Source: Neomegalonema perideroedes DSM 15528 (GTDB lineage Bacteria; Pseudomonadota; Alphaproteobacteria; Rhodobacterales; Rhodobacteraceae). Taken from it: a stretch of 64,000 nucleotides of DNA. Each line of letters begins with the position of its first letter. Position 1 is the stretch's first letter. The position numbers and the translations under genes were made by a program. Location of the stretch: assembly GCF_000374145.1 (NCBI RefSeq), contig NZ_KB893653.1, positions 1,411,923-1,475,922 of the forward strand, written 5' to 3'. The notes beneath the pieces were generated by a model that saw nothing but the letters and a program-made list of their open reading frames with translations, searched no databases and was not told the DNA's origin. Of the stretch, positions 38,001 to 59,080 are shown in pieces.

Positions 38001-39527
38001 ATGAAGAAGACGAAACGCCGATCTTCTTTCCGCACGAAGATCCTCGGGGTGGCCATGCTCGCCAGCCTTCTGGCGGTGCTGTCCGCGACGGCGGCCATGA
38101 GCGTGCGCGACTACATCTCGCAGAATCTGAGCTTTCGCGACCATCACAACCGCCTCGCCCAGAGTCTGGCCCTGACGGCGGCGGTCGGCATGGCCGCCCG
38201 TCCCGACGCCCAGATGCACGAGGCCTTCGCCATGATGGCCCGCGCGCCGGGCGTGGACAGCGTCAAGCTGGCGGCGCCGGACGGGACGATCCTCTCCAGC
38301 TTCGTGCGCAATCCCGACGGCCTGAACGAAAAGCCGAGCGTGTTGTTCTATGCGCCGGTGATCTCGCCTGAAGGCCGGGTTCTGGGCTCGGTGCGGCTGA
38401 TGGCGCGGCGCGTCCAGCCGATGACCCTGTTGCAGAATCATCTGATCGTGGCGGGGATCATCCTGACTCTGGCGAGCGGGCTGTCCTATCTGGCGGCCCT
38501 GCGGCTCTGGCCGACGGTGGGCGAGCCGCTGCGTGAATTGCGCCGGGCCATGCGGCGGCTGGCGGAGACGAAGGATTACTCCAGTCGGCTGGACCGCTCG
38601 CCGGACGGAGAAGTGGACGATCTGATTCAGGCCTTCAACGCCATGATCGCCGAAATCGAGCGGCGCGACCTCGCTTATGACGCGGCCATCGGCGAACTGG
38701 CCTCCGCCCGCGACGCCGCCAATCGCGCCAATCGCGCCAAGACGCAATTCCTCGCGGTGATGAGCCATGAGCTGCGCACGCCTCTGAACGCGGTGATCGG
38801 CTACGCCGAGCTCATCAAGGAGGAGCTGCGCCACGGCGCCGATCCCCATGAGCTGATCCCCGACGCCGACCGCATCCGCAGTTCGGCGCAGGGCCTGCTG
38901 GAGATGATCAACGGCATCCTCGACATGACCACCGCCGAGGGCGGCCGCATGCGGGTCAACTGGTCGCCGGTGGACGCCGGAGATCTCGCGCGCGACGTGA
39001 CCGAAACCCTCGCGCCTCTGGCCGCCCGCAAGGGCAATCTTATGACCGTCGAGATTCTGGAGCAGCCGAAAGGCTTCGTCACCGACGAGCAGCGCCTGCG
39101 CCAGTGCCTCGTGAATCTGCTCGGCAACGCGGCGAAATTCACCGAACAGGGCGAGGTCGGGCTGCGGATCTCCATGCGCTACGTCCCCGGGGCCGCGCCG
39201 CGCGTGATCTTCGAGGTGGGCGACACCGGGCCGGGCATGTCGCAGCAGCAGGTGGAGAGCCTTTTTCAGCCCTTCGCCCAGCTCGACAGCTCCAGCGCCC
39301 GCAAGCATGAGGGCGCCGGGCTGGGGCTCGCCATCAGCCGCAAGCTCGCGCGGCTGCTCGGCGGAGACATCCATGTGCGCAGCGTCGTGGGGGTGGGCAG
39401 CGTCTTCTCGATAGACCTGCCCCTCGCGCCCCCGGGATACGCCGCCGCCTCGCGCGAAGAGCCCGAAGCCGCCGCTCCCGCGCGGAGTTCGGGCTTCGGG
39501 CCGGGAGAAGTCGAAGATGCGGCCTGA
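38001..39527 (+). CDS. Membrane sensor histidine kinase
   Basis: 508 residues. Membrane helices at about 14-34 and 147-167 enclose a ~110-residue periplasmic sensor domain of CHASE/dCache-like size. HAMP follows (about 168-222), then a HisKA domain with H256 in M-S-H-E-L-R-T-P, the N-box L-L-G-N-A-A-K-F, and ATP-lid motifs D-T-G-P-G-M and G-A-G-L-G-L-A-I-S. The C-terminus is a short Ala/Pro-rich tail. The signal is unknown. Start ATG has only a weak ribosome site. It is followed 30 bases later by a second kinase with a receiver domain, a likely partner. Confidence 0.9.
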   Translation: MKKTKRRSSFRTKILGVAMLASLLAVLSATAAMSVRDYISQNLSFRDHHNRLAQSLALTAAVGMAARPDAQMHEAFAMMARAPGVDSVKLAAPDGTILSSFVRNPDGLNEKPSVLFYAPVISPEGRVLGSVRLMARRVQPMTLLQNHLIVAGIILTLASGLSYLAALRLWPTVGEPLRELRRAMRRLAETKDYSSRLDRSPDGEVDDLIQAFNAMIAEIERRDLAYDAAIGELASARDAANRANRAKTQFLAVMSHELRTPLNAVIGYAELIKEELRHGADPHELIPDADRIRSSAQGLLEMINGILDMTTAEGGRMRVNWSPVDAGDLARDVTETLAPLAARKGNLMTVEILEQPKGFVTDEQRLRQCLVNLLGNAAKFTEQGEVGLRISMRYVPGAAPRVIFEVGDTGPGMSQQQVESLFQPFAQLDSSSARKHEGAGLGLAISRKLARLLGGDIHVRSVVGVGSVFSIDLPLAPPGYAAASREEPEAAAPARSSGFGPGEVEDAA

Positions 39528-39557: not shown

Positions 39558-40832
39558 ATGACGGCTTTCTCTCCCCAAGCCTCCAATCAGCCGGCGAGGC
39601 TGCTGGTGGTGGACGATTCCTTCGAAAGCCGCGACATGCTCGCCCGGCGCCTGCGCCGACGCGGCTACGCCGTGGCGGAAGCCGCCTCCGGCGCCGACGC
39701 TCTGGCGCTCATCGAGCGCTCGCCGCCGGACGTGGCGCTCTTCGATTATATGATGCCCGAGATGAGCGGGCTGGACGCTTTGAAGATCATCCGCCGCTCC
39801 TGGGGGCGTTCGGATCTGCCGGTGATCATGGTCACGGCGCGGGCCGATCAGGAAAGCATCGTCGAGACGCTGAACGCGGGCGCCAACGACTACGTGGCCA
39901 AGCCCGTCGAGGTGATGGTGGCGGTGGCCCGCATCGAGGCCCAGCTGGAGCGCCGTCGGGCGGCTTTGGCTCTGCGGAGCATGAACGCCCATCTTGAGGC
40001 CCTCGTCGCCGAACGCACCGCGGCGCTCAGCGCGGTCAACGCCGAATTGCGCCGCGAGATCGCCGCCCGGACTCTGGCGGAGCAGGCCCTCCGCGAGGCC
40101 AAGGCCCTCGCGGAGGAGGGCAGCGCCGCCAAGACGCGCTTCCTCGCCAATATGAGCCATGAGCTGCGCACGCCTCTGAACGCGGTGATCGGCTTCGCGG
40201 AATTGCTCTCGGACCAATCCCCGACCGACAGCCCTCAGGGCGAATATTCCGAGGCCATTCTGGAGAGCGGCCGTCAGCTTCTGGGCCTGATCAACAGCGT
40301 GATCCACTTCGTGCGGGTGGATTCGGGCGCCGATCCTCTGCATGAGGTCGAGACGAGCCTTGGCGATTTCCTGACCGACATGGCCCGCGCCGCGACTCCT
40401 TCGGCGATGCGGGCGGGCGTGGAGATCCGCACCCATCTGGCCGAGGGCCTGCCGCGGGCGCGGGTGGACGTGCGGCTGCTGGCGGAGGCTCTGGGCAAGC
40501 TGATCGACAATGCGGTGAAGTTCACGCCTCCGGGCGGCGAGGTGCGCCTCTGGGTGGGCTACGCCCGCGAGGGCGTGGAGATCCGGGTGGAGGACGACGG
40601 CCCCGGCGTGGATCCGGCTCTGGCGGAGCAGATGATGAAGCCCTTTTCGCTCGGGGATGAAAGCTACGCCCGGGCGCATGGGGGGCTCGGGCTTGGTCTG
40701 CCGACGGCTCTGCGGGTGATGGAGCGCCACGGCGGACGCCTGATCGTCGAGCGCCGCGAGGGCGGCGGCGGAGTGGCGCGGGCGATTCTGCCGATGGACC
40801 GGCTCAGCCCCTCGACCGAAAGCGCCGCCTGA
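39558..40832 (+). CDS. Receiver domain-histidine kinase protein (soluble)
   Basis: 424 residues, no membrane helix. N-terminal receiver domain (about 13-130) with D19/D20, phosphoacceptor D63 in L-F-D-Y-M-M-P, T93 and K115. Next is a coiled coil (about 125-190), a HisKA with H201 in M-S-H-E-L-R-T-P, N-box L-I-D-N-A-V-K-F and ATP motifs D-D-G-P-G-V and G-L-G-L-G-L. The kinase upstream may phosphorylate D63, which would then tune H201. No DNA-binding response regulator is encoded beside it, so the output is elsewhere. Confidence 0.9.
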   Translation: MTAFSPQASNQPARLLVVDDSFESRDMLARRLRRRGYAVAEAASGADALALIERSPPDVALFDYMMPEMSGLDALKIIRRSWGRSDLPVIMVTARADQESIVETLNAGANDYVAKPVEVMVAVARIEAQLERRRAALALRSMNAHLEALVAERTAALSAVNAELRREIAARTLAEQALREAKALAEEGSAAKTRFLANMSHELRTPLNAVIGFAELLSDQSPTDSPQGEYSEAILESGRQLLGLINSVIHFVRVDSGADPLHEVETSLGDFLTDMARAATPSAMRAGVEIRTHLAEGLPRARVDVRLLAEALGKLIDNAVKFTPPGGEVRLWVGYAREGVEIRVEDDGPGVDPALAEQMMKPFSLGDESYARAHGGLGLGLPTALRVMERHGGRLIVERREGGGGVARAILPMDRLSPSTESAA

Positions 40833-41192: not shown

Positions 41193-42611
41193 ATGTTGAT
41201 TCCGCTCATCATCGCCTGCGCGCTCTTCATGGAGAATCTCGATTCCGCCGTGCTCTCGACGGCCCTTCCGGCCATCTCGCAGGATCTCGGCGTCGATCCC
41301 ATCGCGCTCAAACTGGCCTTCACGAGCTATCTGCTCTCCATCGCGGTCTTCACGCCGATCTCCGGATGGTGCGCCGACCGCTACGGCTCCCGCACCGTCT
41401 TCCGCACCGCCATCGTGATCTTCACGGCGGGCTCTGCGCTTTGCGGCTTCGCCAGCTCGCTGGAGGGCTTCATCGGCGCGCGCGTGGTGCAGGGGCTCGG
41501 CGGGGCGATGATGGTGCCGGTGGGGCGTCTGGTGCTGCTGCGCTCGGTGGAGCGCAAGGATTACGTCCGGGCGCTCTCATGGCTGACCATTCCGGGGCTG
41601 CTCGGGCCGGTGATGGGCGCGCCGCTCGGCGGATTCATCACCACCTATTTCGAATGGCGCTGGATCTTCTGGATCAACATTCCGATTGGAATCCTCGGCT
41701 TCGTTCTGGCCACGATCTTCATCCAGAATTTCCGCGAGGAGAACCCGCCGCCCCTCGACGGGACGGGCTTTCTGCTTTCGGCGCTCGGCATGACGGGGCT
41801 GGTCTTCGGCGTGGCGGTGAGCGGCGTCGGGATGCTGGCGGGCTGGATCGAGATGCTGATCATCTTCGGCGGCGCCGGATTCCTCGCGCTTTACGCGCGC
41901 CACGCCTTCCGCACGCCGCATCCTCTGGTGAATCTGCGGATTCTCAACGTCCAGACCTATCGCGTGAGCGTCACGGCGGGGTCGGTCTTTCGTCTGGCCA
42001 TCGGAGGCTGGCCTTTCCTTCTGCCGCTGATGCTGCAGCTCGGTTTCGGCAAGACGCCCATGGAGAGCGGCCTTCTGACCATGGCCGGAGCGGCGGGCGC
42101 GCTCTCGATGAAATTCGCGGCGCCGCCTTTGCTGCGCCGTTACGGCTTTCGGCGGGTGCTGACGGTCAACGTCTTCCTGACGGCGATTTCTCTGGGCCTC
42201 TACGGCGCGATGAGCGTCGAGACTCCCGCCTTTCTGATCTTCGGCCTGATCTTCGCGGGCGGCTTTCTGCGCTCGCTGCAGTTCACGGCCTTCAACGCCA
42301 TGGCCTACGCCGATCTGCCGAATAATCTGATGAGTCAGGGCACCAGCCTCTCCAGCGTGATGCAGCAGGTCTCCATCGCCTGCGGCGTGACGCTCGCGGC
42401 GCTGCTGCTGGAGACGAGCCGCGGCCTCGACGGGCGGACGGAGCTTGCGGTGTCGGATTTCTCCTTCGCCTTTGTGGTTTTGGCGGGGCTGGCGCTGCTC
42501 TGCGCGCCGATCCTGCTGCGTCTGCCGCCTTCGGCGGGCGAGAACGTGTCCGGGCATCAGGAGAATCCGCGCAACGCCAAGCTGCCCCATCTGCGCGAGC
42601 CGCCGCATTAG
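41193..42611 (+). CDS. MFS drug:H+ antiporter-2 (DHA2) family exporter
   Basis: 472 residues with about 14 membrane helices, typical of the DHA2 family (EmrB-like). It has the motif-A loop G-W-C-A-D-R-Y-G-S-R and the motif-C-like G-L-L-G-P-V-M-G-A-P-L-G-G. Substrate unknown. The protein begins directly with a helix (M-L-I-P-L-I-I-A-C-A-L-F), slightly short at the N-terminus, so an upstream start is possible but not supported. Its TAG stop is the first triplet of the palindromic repeat at 42609-42712. Confidence 0.9.
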   Translation: MLIPLIIACALFMENLDSAVLSTALPAISQDLGVDPIALKLAFTSYLLSIAVFTPISGWCADRYGSRTVFRTAIVIFTAGSALCGFASSLEGFIGARVVQGLGGAMMVPVGRLVLLRSVERKDYVRALSWLTIPGLLGPVMGAPLGGFITTYFEWRWIFWINIPIGILGFVLATIFIQNFREENPPPLDGTGFLLSALGMTGLVFGVAVSGVGMLAGWIEMLIIFGGAGFLALYARHAFRTPHPLVNLRILNVQTYRVSVTAGSVFRLAIGGWPFLLPLMLQLGFGKTPMESGLLTMAGAAGALSMKFAAPPLLRRYGFRRVLTVNVFLTAISLGLYGAMSVETPAFLIFGLIFAGGFLRSLQFTAFNAMAYADLPNNLMSQGTSLSSVMQQVSIACGVTLAALLLETSRGLDGRTELAVSDFSFAFVVLAGLALLCAPILLRLPPSAGENVSGHQENPRNAKLPHLREPPH

Positions 42612-42712
42612 AGCGTTTTCCAGCGAAACCGATCAGGTTTCGCGTCGCGAAAGCGCGACAGAATAAAGAGTTGGAGCGTTTGAACGACCCGATTAGGTCG
42701 GAAAACGCGCTA
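42609..42712. repeat. Intergenic palindromic repeat, copy 1
   Basis: About 104 bases between convergent genes. The ends are inverted: TAGAGCGTTTTCC on the left, and TAGCGCGTTTTCC read from the right. Inside are small stems such as GAAACC/GGTTTC and TTTCGCG/CGCGAAA. Two diverged copies occur at 57338-57442 (opposite orientation) and 58977-59080. Both terminal TAG triplets are used as stop codons, for the MFS gene (plus) and the RHH gene (minus). Confidence 0.85.
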
Positions 42713-42961
42713 AGAGGAGGCTTCGCCGATCTCGCCCTTCAGCGCCGCCCTGAGCGCCCGCACCCGAATGGCCGAAGAGAGATTGAGCTCTCCCTCTTTC
42801 AGGCGCTCGGCGTCGATGCGGGCGGCCATTTCGCCCAGACTCACGCCCTCGGCGGCGGCGAGCGCCCGGAAGGCCGCCCAGAAAGGCGCCTCCAGAGTCA
42901 CGCTGGTGCGGTGCCCCCGGATGCTCAGGGAATGTTTGACCAGCTTCAGGCCGCCGCTCAC
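42710..42961 (-). CDS. Ribbon-helix-helix domain protein
   Basis: 83 residues from a GTG at 42961 that overlaps the stop of the CPBP gene (GTGA). The sequence K-H-S-L-S-I-R-G-H-R-T-S-V-T-L-E-A-P-F-W and S-L-G-E-M-A-A-R-I-D fits the small RHH_4-type family of alphaproteobacterial proteins. RHH folds bind DNA as dimers; this family is often annotated as a regulator or an accessory protein of unknown target. It is coupled to the membrane protease gene. Its TAG stop is provided by the right end of the palindromic repeat. Confidence 0.8.
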   Translation of the reverse strand: MSGGLKLVKHSLSIRGHRTSVTLEAPFWAAFRALAAAEGVSLGEMAARIDAERLKEGELNLSSAIRVRALRAALKGEIGEASS

Positions 42962-43908
42962 GCCTTGAGTCCGATCCAGCGCCCGAAAGGCAGATGCGGA
43001 GTCGTGAAGGCCCAGAAACAAGAGGCGAGATAAAGCGCCATCGTGACCATCAGGCTCAGGGGCGGCAGTCCGGAGGAGGAGAGCGCCGCATCCGGCGAGA
43101 CGTCGCCGCCCGACAGGAAGAGCAGCAGAAAGACGATGTAGTTGTTCATCGCGTGAAAGCCGACGGCGCCTGAAATCCCGCCTTCGGCGCGGGTCATGGC
43201 CAGAGTGATCGCGCCCATGCCCGCCGCGAACAGAATCTGGACCCAGACCATGCCGGCCTCCGTCTGAGAGCTCACGCTGGTGATGTGGAGCCCCGCGAAG
43301 AGGAGCAGCGGCAGGCTCGACCAGAGCCCGACCCAAGGCCGCCAGCGCGCCGCGAGAATTTGCGTCATATGCCCGCGAAAGAGCATCTCCTCCGCGCCGG
43401 ATTGCAGGATCGCCATCGGAAAAAGCAGAACGGCGAACCAGAGAAGCCCGTCCGGCGGGCCGCCCGCCTGCGCCGGAGCGGCGCCCGTCGCCATCGCCGC
43501 CGCGAGATGTCCGGAGGCGAACAGATAGGCCCAGAGCAGAGGAAGGAAACCGATCCGCCCGAGCACGGCGCACAGGACTCCGCCCCAGAAGGGCCGCCAT
43601 TCGAATTGGCGGCTCCAGCCCCAGATCGTCGAGGGCGTCAGGCCGTGCAGCCAGAAGCGCAGGGCGAAGACGCCGATCCAGATCCCCGCGAAGGAGAGCA
43701 GCAGAATCGTCGTGCTGGCGAAGCTGGAGAATTGTTCGAAGCCGCCGGGGCCTGCGCCCATCGCCAGCAACAGGGCGATGGTCAGCAGCATCTGACAGGT
43801 CAAGGCCGCGGCCAGCGACAGGATCACGCTGAGGCCGATCCTCCATCCGCCCCCCAGACGCGCCGCGCGGGCCTGATCCAGCCAGATGTCGAAACGGTCG
43901 CGCGCCAT
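42958..43908 (-). CDS. CPBP family intramembrane metalloprotease
   Basis: 316 residues, about eight membrane helices. The three CPBP (CAAX-protease/bacteriocin-processing) motifs are intact: E173-E174-x-x-x-R178, F-x-x-x-H208, and H252-x-x-x-N256. Such enzymes cut substrates inside the membrane, or act in bacteriocin self-immunity; the substrate is unknown. The ATG is family-like though the ribosome site (GGAGG 5-6 bases upstream) is modest. Coupled to the RHH gene. Confidence 0.9.
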   Translation of the reverse strand: MARDRFDIWLDQARAARLGGGWRIGLSVILSLAAALTCQMLLTIALLLAMGAGPGGFEQFSSFASTTILLLSFAGIWIGVFALRFWLHGLTPSTIWGWSRQFEWRPFWGGVLCAVLGRIGFLPLLWAYLFASGHLAAAMATGAAPAQAGGPPDGLLWFAVLLFPMAILQSGAEEMLFRGHMTQILAARWRPWVGLWSSLPLLLFAGLHITSVSSQTEAGMVWVQILFAAGMGAITLAMTRAEGGISGAVGFHAMNNYIVFLLLFLSGGDVSPDAALSSSGLPPLSLMVTMALYLASCFWAFTTPHLPFGRWIGLKA

Positions 43909-57337: not shown

Positions 57338-57442
57338 TAGAGCGCTTTCCGATCATATCTGATCGTTCAAACGCTCTAAGCTTTGACGTGGCCGCATTTT
57401 CGCGACGCGAAGCCAGAAAGGCTTCGCTGGAAAATGCTCTAG
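57338..57442. repeat. Intergenic palindromic repeat, copy 2 (inverted)
   Basis: Reverse complement aligns with copy 1: it begins CTAGAGCATTTTCC and ends with TAGAGCGCTTTCC on the other strand, with the TTTCGCGTCGCGAAAA-like core kept. It sits between proV and amaB; the amaB stop TAG is its terminal triplet. Confidence 0.85.
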
Positions 57443-58959
57443 TCGATGTCGAAGACCACGCCCTGAGCCAGCGGCAGGGCGTCGGAGTAATTGATGGTGT
57501 TGGTGGCGCGGCGCATGTAGCCCTTCCACGCGTCGGAGCCGGATTCGCGTCCGCCTCCGGTCTCCTTTTCGCCTCCGAAGGCCCCGCCGATCTCGGCGCC
57601 CGAAGTGCCGATATTGACGTTGGCGATGCCGCAATCCGAACCCGCCGCCGAGAGGAACCGCTCCGCCTCTCGCAGATCCCGCGTGAAGATCGCCGAGGAA
57701 AGCCCCGCCGTCACGGCGTTTTGCGCGGCGACGGCCTCCTCAAGATCGGCGTAGCGCATCACATAGAGGATCGGAGCGAAGGTCTCCTCCAGAACAGGGC
57801 CGACTTGCCCGGAGATCTCCACGAGGGCGGGGCGCATGTAATAAGCCGCCTCCGGCCCGACCGCCTCGCGTCCGCCGCCATGCACGATTCCGCCCGCCGC
57901 CTTGGCCGCCTCCAGCGCCTTGACCATGCCGTCATGAGCCGCCTTGTCGATCAGCGGCCCCACGAGGGCCTCCGTCGCCAGAGGATCGCCCACCGAAACC
58001 GAGGCGTAGGCTTTCTTCAGACGCGGCACGAGGGCGTCGTAGATCGAGTCATGGACGAAGAGCCGCCTCAGGCTGGTGCAGCGCTGGCCCGCCGTGCCCA
58101 TGGCGCCGAAGGCCACGGCGCGCAGAGCCATGTCGAGATCCGCCGTCGGCGCGACGATGGCCGCGTTATTGCCGCCCAATTCGAGGATGCTCCGCCCGAA
58201 GCGCGCCGCGACCTTCGGCCCGACGATCCGGCCCATGCGCGTCGAGCCTGTGGCCGAGATCAGCGGAACGCCGGGATTCTCCACGAGGGCCGCGCCGATC
58301 TCCGGCCCGCCGATGAGGATTTGGCTCAGATGCTCCGGCGCCGAGCCGAAGCGCGCTAAAGCCTTCTCCAGCACGGCCTGAGAGGCGAGGGCGGTCAGAG
58401 GCGTCTTCTCCGAGGGCTTCCAGATCACAGGATCGCCGCAGACCAGAGCCAGAGCCGCGTTCCACGACCAGACCGCCACCGGGAAGTTGAAGGCCGAGAC
58501 GATCCCCACCGGGCCCAGCGGATGCCACGTCTCCATCATGCGATGTCCGGGGCGTTCGCTGGCGATGGTCAAGCCGTAAAGCTGGCGCGAGAGGCCCACG
58601 GCGAAATCGCAGATGTCGATCATCTCCTGAACCTCGCCGAGGCCCTCGGAGCGGCTCTTCCCCGCTTCGATGGAGACCAAAGCCCCGAGATCCTCTTTGG
58701 CGGCGCGCAATTCCTCGCCGAGGAGCCGCACAAGCTCGCCCCGGCGCGGCGCGGGAACCTCGCGCCAGATGCGGAAGGCCGCCTGAGCCCGCTCCACGGC
58801 CTGCGCGGCCTCCGCGAGGGAATGGGGCGTCAGCCCGCCGACGACCTCGCCAGTCAGCGGCGAACGGCTCTCCAGAGGTCCGCCCTGAAAGGCGGAGGCC
58901 GCGACTCCCAAACGAGCGAGAATTTCGGCGGTCCGGGCGGCGAGAGGCGAGGACGACAT
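57439..58959 (-). CDS. amaB: Aldehyde dehydrogenase, L-piperidine-6-carboxylate (alpha-aminoadipic semialdehyde) type
   Basis: 506 residues, ALDH7-like. Catalytic C294 in G-Q-R-C-T-S-L-R-R and general base E260 in L-E-L-G-G-N-N. The C-terminal N-V-N-I-G-T-S-G-A-E-I-G-G-A-F-G-G-E-K-E-T-G-G-G-R-E-S-G is specific to the AmaB/ALDH7 group. It oxidises alpha-aminoadipic semialdehyde in lysine/pipecolate degradation. Divergent from an AmaA-like oxidase, which supports this role. Palindromic repeats flank it on both sides. Confidence 0.85.
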   Translation of the reverse strand: MSSSPLAARTAEILARLGVAASAFQGGPLESRSPLTGEVVGGLTPHSLAEAAQAVERAQAAFRIWREVPAPRRGELVRLLGEELRAAKEDLGALVSIEAGKSRSEGLGEVQEMIDICDFAVGLSRQLYGLTIASERPGHRMMETWHPLGPVGIVSAFNFPVAVWSWNAALALVCGDPVIWKPSEKTPLTALASQAVLEKALARFGSAPEHLSQILIGGPEIGAALVENPGVPLISATGSTRMGRIVGPKVAARFGRSILELGGNNAAIVAPTADLDMALRAVAFGAMGTAGQRCTSLRRLFVHDSIYDALVPRLKKAYASVSVGDPLATEALVGPLIDKAAHDGMVKALEAAKAAGGIVHGGGREAVGPEAAYYMRPALVEISGQVGPVLEETFAPILYVMRYADLEEAVAAQNAVTAGLSSAIFTRDLREAERFLSAAGSDCGIANVNIGTSGAEIGGAFGGEKETGGGRESGSDAWKGYMRRATNTINYSDALPLAQGVVFDID

Positions 58960-58976: not shown

Positions 58977-59080
58977 GAGCATTTTCCAGCGCAGCCGATC
59001 AGGCTTCGCGTCGCGAAAATGCGACCACATAAAAGCTTAGAGCGTTTGAGCGATCCGATGGGATCGGACAACGCTCTCAG
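58977..59080. repeat. Intergenic palindromic repeat, copy 3
   Basis: Same orientation as copy 1. It starts CGAGCATTTTCCAGCG and keeps the core GCTTCGCGTCGCGAAAATGCG; the right end is CAACGCTCTC. Terminal TAG triplets are mutated in this copy. It lies in the amaB/amaA divergent gap. Confidence 0.85.

What the first reader, a model, noticed from the sequence alone, without database searches (positions are those of the whole stretch)
42609..42712. Palindromic repeat whose two ends serve as stop codons of convergent genes
The repeat starts TAGAGCG on the plus strand and TAGCGCG on the minus strand. The MFS exporter ends exactly on the left TAG and the RHH gene ends exactly on the right TAG. In copy 2 the terminal TAG is also the stop of amaB. 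So the element seems to have settled in or just after gene ends while bringing its own stop codons, letting it replace native 3' ends.
Basis: seen in the sequence. Interest (0 to 1): 0.55.

Follow-up and report, generated by a model that had tools for sequence, protein, structure and literature searches.

The report
Mobile repeat landing on stop codons
A short repeated DNA element inserted itself into the TA shared by the stop codons of two facing genes, and because it copies that TA and adds a G, both genes got a new stop codon in the same place and their proteins kept their ends.

Summary
In detail: the repeat at 42609-42712 begins TAG on each strand, and these are the stops of the MFS and RHH genes. 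The reading that it replaces native 3' ends is wrong. The close relative Neomegalonema sp. STC_130 has the empty site CCGCATTAAGAGG, a TTAA shared by two overlapping TAA stops, with both stops at the same codon. The element proper is 100 bp (42611-42710) between duplicated TAs, so each "TAG" is host TA plus the element's G. A model finds 133 matches in the genome, some partial or overlapping. In copies with clean ends the target reads YTAR; 20 of 45 touch a gene stop exactly. Orthologous stops keep their position as often at the element (19 of 25) as elsewhere (72 of 90). Once gene context is matched, YTAR preference plus tolerance of gene ends explains most of the coincidence. The element is a TA-duplicating, MITE-like repeat resembling the Bru-RS and CIR repeats of Alphaproteobacteria. 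YTAR with TA duplication is also the published target of Brucella IS711. No mover was found. New member of a known kind.

The parts
42611..42710 (+). element proper, copy 1 (100 bp, GAGCGTTTTCC...GGAAAACGCGC)
   Evidence: bounds set by comparison with the empty site in L113
42609..42610 (.). left copy of the duplicated target TA; first two bases of the MFS stop
   Evidence: empty site CAT-TA-AGAGG in L113
42711..42712 (.). right copy of the duplicated target TA; first two bases (minus strand) of the RHH stop
   Evidence: empty site in L113
41193..42611 (+). MFS exporter gene, stop TAG shared with the element end
42710..42970 (-). RHH_4 gene, stop TAG shared with the element end (start not settled)
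57340..57439 (-). element copy 2 (100 bp), TA at 57338-57339 and 57440-57441
57439..58959 (-). aldehyde dehydrogenase gene whose TAG stop is the end of copy 2
58977..59076 (+). element copy 3 (100 bp), both flanking dinucleotides read TC, no stop touched

Best explanation
The repeat is a non-coding, TA-duplicating mobile element (MITE-like, 100 bp, ends GAGCG...CGCTC) that inserts at YTAR. Shown by sequence: in the relative the two convergent genes overlap tail to tail in TTAA, both ending TAA; in our genome the central TA is duplicated around the element, so the plus gene reads TA+G at the left end and the minus gene TA+G at the right end, with both stops at the same codon. YTAR carries TAR on both strands, so tolerated landings fall often on TAA/TAG stops and in 3' gaps. 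Inferred: mobilisation in trans by an IS whose transposase duplicates TA at YTAR, like IS711.
For: Empty site GCCGCCGCATTAAGAGGAGG in L113, predicted in a note before it was read. Other junctions with TA in the relative: C1:835281 (TTAA), C1:424901 (CTAA, right copy now TC), C2:687175 (CTAG, left copy now CA). In 47 copies with clean ends the flanking dinucleotide is TA on the left in 27 and on the right in 19; 40 of the 48 other flanks are one step from TA; the next base out is Y in 43 and R in 46. Genes pointing into the 45 clean copies end exactly at the end TAG/TAA in 23 cases and inside the element in 2 (another 23 stop within 100 bp before it); chance framing would give one in three of those reaching the element (P 1.5e-9). 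Orthologous stop positions are kept. IS711: TA duplicated at YTAR (PMC2266754, PMC3163539, passages).
Against: At 4 of 8 junctions that I could read closely the relative has TGA, not TA (C2:273832, C12:75757, C1:1264415, C1:1469260). More widely, at 14 element-end stops whose site is without the element in the relative, 11 are TGA there, against 9 of 19 TAA/TAG stops away from the element (Fisher P 0.09). Ordinary stop turnover can account for this, but the TA before insertion is then inferred. 25 of 45 clean copies touch no stop. No IS with matching ends was found: PF13358 0 and PF13340 0 in this genome, PF01609 1 with other ends.
Confidence: 0.86

Rival explanations
1. The element brings its own stop codons and replaces native gene 3' ends.
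For: Its ends are the present stops. Of 16 element-end stops with an ortholog, three differ by one or two codons (C13:55170 +2, C2:338666 +1, C1:1219685 +1).
Against: 13 of those 16 keep the position, among them both focal genes and the copy 2 gene; overall 19 of 25 against 72 of 90 elsewhere; 23 exact against 2 inside.
Confidence: 0.03
2. Insertion also takes TGA stops (TG instead of TA); the TG then turns to TA because TG+G would open the frame.
For: 11 of 14 element-end stops are TGA in the relative, which lacks the element there. At C1:1264415 the far flank reads CA, which is TG on the gene's strand, as in the relative.
Against: Three of the four closely read TGA cases have TA at both element ends, so both copies would have had to change. 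TA is the commonest flank at both ends. The excess of TGA over background is not significant (P 0.09).
Confidence: 0.08
3. The element is kept at gene ends because it works there, as a two-way transcription terminator or a 3' stabiliser of mRNA.
For: Strong fold (-46.7 kcal/mol, z -6.2). 15 of 45 clean copies lie between convergent genes and 5 between divergent ones.
Against: No terminator-like site with a T run in 42300-43100. Position is largely explained by YTAR preference plus tolerance once context is matched (convergent 10 of 16 against 13 of 23; codirectional 9 of 22 against 15 of 70). No expression data were available.
Confidence: 0.15
4. Active targeting of stop codons or of terminating ribosomes rather than of YTAR.
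For: In convergent plus codirectional contexts 19 of 38 copies are at a stop against 28 of 93 YTAR sites (P 0.04).
Against: In convergent contexts alone there is no excess (P 0.75) and in codirectional ones P is 0.09. Copies away from stops show the same Y and R flanks.
Confidence: 0.07
5. The mover is an IS630/Tc1-mariner system, as proposed for pneumococcal RUP, rather than an IS711-like one.
For: TA target and inverted ends are also the RUP/IS630-Spn1 pattern (PMC2229807 passages).
Against: No DDE_3 domain match in this genome. YTAR with TA duplication is the IS711 rule.
Confidence: 0.25

Closest known systems
Brucella Bru-RS1/Bru-RS2 palindromic repeats and IS711
   Same: 103-106 bp palindromic repeats of an alphaproteobacterium; IS711 duplicates TA at YTAR and has been found inserted in Bru-RS (PMC2266754, PMC3163539, PMC10800456 passages).
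   Different: Sequence relation to Bru-RS was not tested (no Brucella sequence fetched). No IS711-like partner was found in this genome.
CIR repeats of Caulobacter and Brucella
   Same: About 110 bp, inverted-repeat arms, 5'TA3' at the termini (PMC2229807, Table 1 row in a passage, and section 7).
   Different: CIR carry conserved GANTC; only 7 of 45 clean copies here do and the focal copy has none (read). Their TSD is given as '?' in that table; here TA duplication is shown.
Repeats on Agrobacterium, Martelella and Rhizobium plasmids (perhaps RIME-like)
   Same: Same two-part layout, TAGAGC-TTTCC-hairpin-GGAAA-GCG, linker, TAGAGC...GCTCTA, in an alignment with copies from other Alphaproteobacteria.
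   Different: Not found from the focal copy by blastn in plasmids; the link runs through the model R1 and my alignment. RIME sequences themselves were not seen; RIME is only named in a passage of PMC2573895.
BOX repeats of Streptococcus pneumoniae
   Same: In 36 of 58 overlapping genes the BOX repeat encodes the stop at the extreme 3' end, without strong evidence of truncation (PMC3049150 section 9).
   Different: A modular repeat of another phylum; no two-sided TA+G rule is described in that section.
RUP, Correia/NEMIS and ERIC elements
   Same: Small repeats with inverted ends, TA at the termini and target duplication (PMC2229807 Table 1 row in a passage).
   Different: Other hosts; sequences not compared here.

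Membership tests
TA-duplicating MITE | short, non-coding, many dispersed copies | tested here: met
   100 bp; 133 model matches at E 0.01, some partial or overlapping
TA-duplicating MITE | inverted terminal repeats | tested here: met
   GAGCGYTTTCC / GGAARRCGCTC ends; 45 copies with at most 1 mismatch at each end and at least 60 bits
TA-duplicating MITE | target duplication shown by an empty site | tested here: met
   four junctions with TA in the relative; four more closely read ones have TGA there
TA-duplicating MITE | autonomous IS with the same ends in the genome | tested here: inconclusive
   PF13358, PF13340, PF01609 searches and end inspection found none; other IS families were not searched and the mover may be lost
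CIR | about 110 bp with 5'TA3' termini | tested here: met
   104 bp counting both TAs
CIR | conserved GANTC site | tested here: not met
   7 of 45 copies; 1.8 per kb in the element against 4.1 per kb in all own-genome DNA held
CIR | two inverted-repeat arms joined by a linker | tested here: inconclusive
   hairpins within an outer stem in the focal fold and in the consensus
Bru-RS | sequence similarity to Bru-RS1/RS2 | not tested
   no Brucella sequence was fetched
RIME | sequence similarity to RIME1/RIME2 | not tested
   the RIME paper is not held and no RIME sequence was seen

The most novel reading that the evidence does not exclude
The alphaproteobacterial TA-G...C-TA repeats form a class of stop-preserving elements: YTAR targeting plus a terminal purine at both ends lets them land in TAA/TAG stops, even in the shared stop of overlapping convergent genes, without changing either protein, and this safe-landing rule helped them spread in compact high-GC genomes.
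Probability: 0.25. Interest if true: 0.55.

Novelty: new member of a known kind. Interest (0 to 1): 0.33.

Why it matters
It turns a puzzling coincidence into a simple rule: TA duplication plus a terminal G restores a stop on both strands. It shows TA duplication at YTAR for a repeat resembling CIR, whose duplication is marked unknown in the 2007 review seen here, and points to IS711-like transposases as possible movers. Annotators should not read such ends as truncated or rewritten C-termini.

Tried and rejected
Tried without result: Rfam (0 matches); focal copy by blastn in plasmids and phages (no match); G033 copy in plasmids (no match); terminator scan (0); ends of IS5-type transposase loci in the relative (no inverted pair in L324-L328 at the script's settings; L330 of the own genome has a 22-base inverted pair of another sequence). 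The review PMC10969869 holds none of the terms asked for.

Set aside: insertion at TG (TGA stops) as the general rule is kept as a weak rival. That the terminal G is an adaptation is not argued, since a purine at both ends has a chance of about one in four (my estimate). That stop ends keep TA is nearly true by definition and is not used.

Rows dropped: 133 model matches, 128 with fetched flanks (5 not fetched), 45 with at most 1 mismatch in each 11-base end and at least 60 bits; one search used 47 without the bit limit. One search scored 150 of 3138 first-look candidates. Of 28 copies probed in the relative, 18 sites have both flanks aligned with at most 56 bases between them, 2 hold an element or its remnant, 1 is unclear, 5 align on one flank only, 2 have no match (my reading). 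Genes were called by my own codon-score script, not a standard gene finder. Stop comparison used only the DNA of the relative then held.

Not in print: I met no description of the two-sided TA+G rule in paper searches; nearly all papers listed there were seen only in the listing.

Full report
The observation. The repeat at 42609-42712 reads TAGAGCG on one strand and TAGCGCG on the other, and its two end TAGs are the stops of the MFS gene (41193-42611, +) and the RHH_4 gene (minus, ending 42710). Copy 2 ends on the stop of an aldehyde dehydrogenase gene; copy 3 touches no stop.

The empty site. I proposed that TA is a duplicated target and that the site before insertion was CAT-TAA-GAGG, a TTAA shared by two overlapping stops. 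The relative Neomegalonema sp. STC_130 (MFS protein 95% identical) reads GCCGCCGCATTAAGAGGAGG, exactly that. Both genes keep their stop position; TAA became TAG. The element proper is 42611-42710, 100 bp.

Genome-wide. A covariance model from 28 copies finds 133 matches in the 3.41 Mb genome, some partial or overlapping. In 47 copies with clean ends the flanking dinucleotide is TA in 27 (left) and 19 (right), with Y outside on the left in 43 and R outside on the right in 46: target YTAR, with decay in other copies. Of 45 copies with clean ends and at least 60 bits, 20 have at least one end exactly on the stop of a called gene, three at both ends. Genes pointing into these copies end at the end TAG/TAA in 23 cases, inside the element in 2, and within 100 bp before it in 23.

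Does it change proteins? Of genes with stops on or in the element and an ortholog in the DNA held from the relative, 19 of 25 have the stop at the same codon; off the element 72 of 90 (Fisher P 0.78). Of the 16 that end exactly at a clean copy's end, 13 keep the position and three differ by one or two codons.

Results against. At four of eight closely read junctions the relative has TGA where TA is expected. At 14 element-end stops where the relative has no element, 11 are TGA there, against 9 of 19 TAA/TAG stops elsewhere (P 0.09). Stop turnover can explain this, yet TA before insertion is inferred at those sites. The excess at stops is large against all YTAR sites (30 of 249) and non-coding ones (30 of 173), but mostly goes when gene context is matched: convergent 10 of 16 against 13 of 23, codirectional 9 of 22 against 15 of 70, together P 0.04. 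So target choice plus tolerance of gene ends nearly suffices, with at most a weak extra preference. The comparison sites come from the same fetched stretches.

Relatives. By blastn 2 of 41 genomes match, the own one and the same-genus G001. The model matches 5 of 142 genomes at E 1e-4, the own one included. The eight matches in the other four genomes share the two-part layout to varying degree; 3 of 8 have TAG at both ends. A copy from one of them (G147) matches 14 plasmid records, 7 of them Agrobacterium. In G147 6 of 14 inspected copies, and in G033 2 of 4, have an end on a called gene stop. The model's E-values are rough.

Mover. No DDE_3 or DUF4096 match in the genome; one DDE_Tnp_1 match with other ends; IS5-type genes in the relative without matching ends in the DNA held. 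IS711 of Brucella duplicates TA at YTAR and has been found in Bru-RS repeats (PMC2266754, PMC3163539, passages). That IS711 belongs to the IS5 family is recalled, not from a call.

Known precedents. BOX elements supply the stop of 36 pneumococcal genes without strong evidence of truncation (PMC3049150 section 9). CIR repeats have TA termini and an unknown duplication (PMC2229807) but carry GANTC, which is scarce here. I file the element as a TA-duplicating MITE-like repeat resembling CIR and Bru-RS, not as a CIR.

Verdict. Observation confirmed, interpretation corrected, stop preservation well supported, mover unknown.

Noticed in passing
window 42611-42710 and loci L269, L266, L321: The element looks nested: its second half is itself bounded by (TA)GAGC...GCTCTA, as if two modules were joined by a linker.
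   Followed up: partly
G000:C2:785342-785547; C1:1219483-1219685; C2:685608-685810; C1:1179965-1180171: Tandem or overlapping runs of copies, some perhaps inserted into or next to one another.
   Followed up: no
G000:C2:1172203-1172314 (L004): A copy of 108 bp with an 8-base insertion beside a similar stretch (GTTTGAAG/GTTTGAAC).
   Followed up: no
G147 copies L297, L298, L301, L302: A second length class of 111-112 bp beside the class of about 100 bp in another alphaproteobacterium.
   Followed up: no
window 38735-38809 and 40127-40201: Two neighbouring stretches, the second inside the sensor-like ORF 39558-40832, are 89% identical over 75 bases.
   Followed up: no
G000 and G001 stops: TAA/TAG stops of G000 away from the element are TGA in G001 in 9 of 19 cases, while TGA stops are TGA in 67 of 71.
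   Followed up: partly
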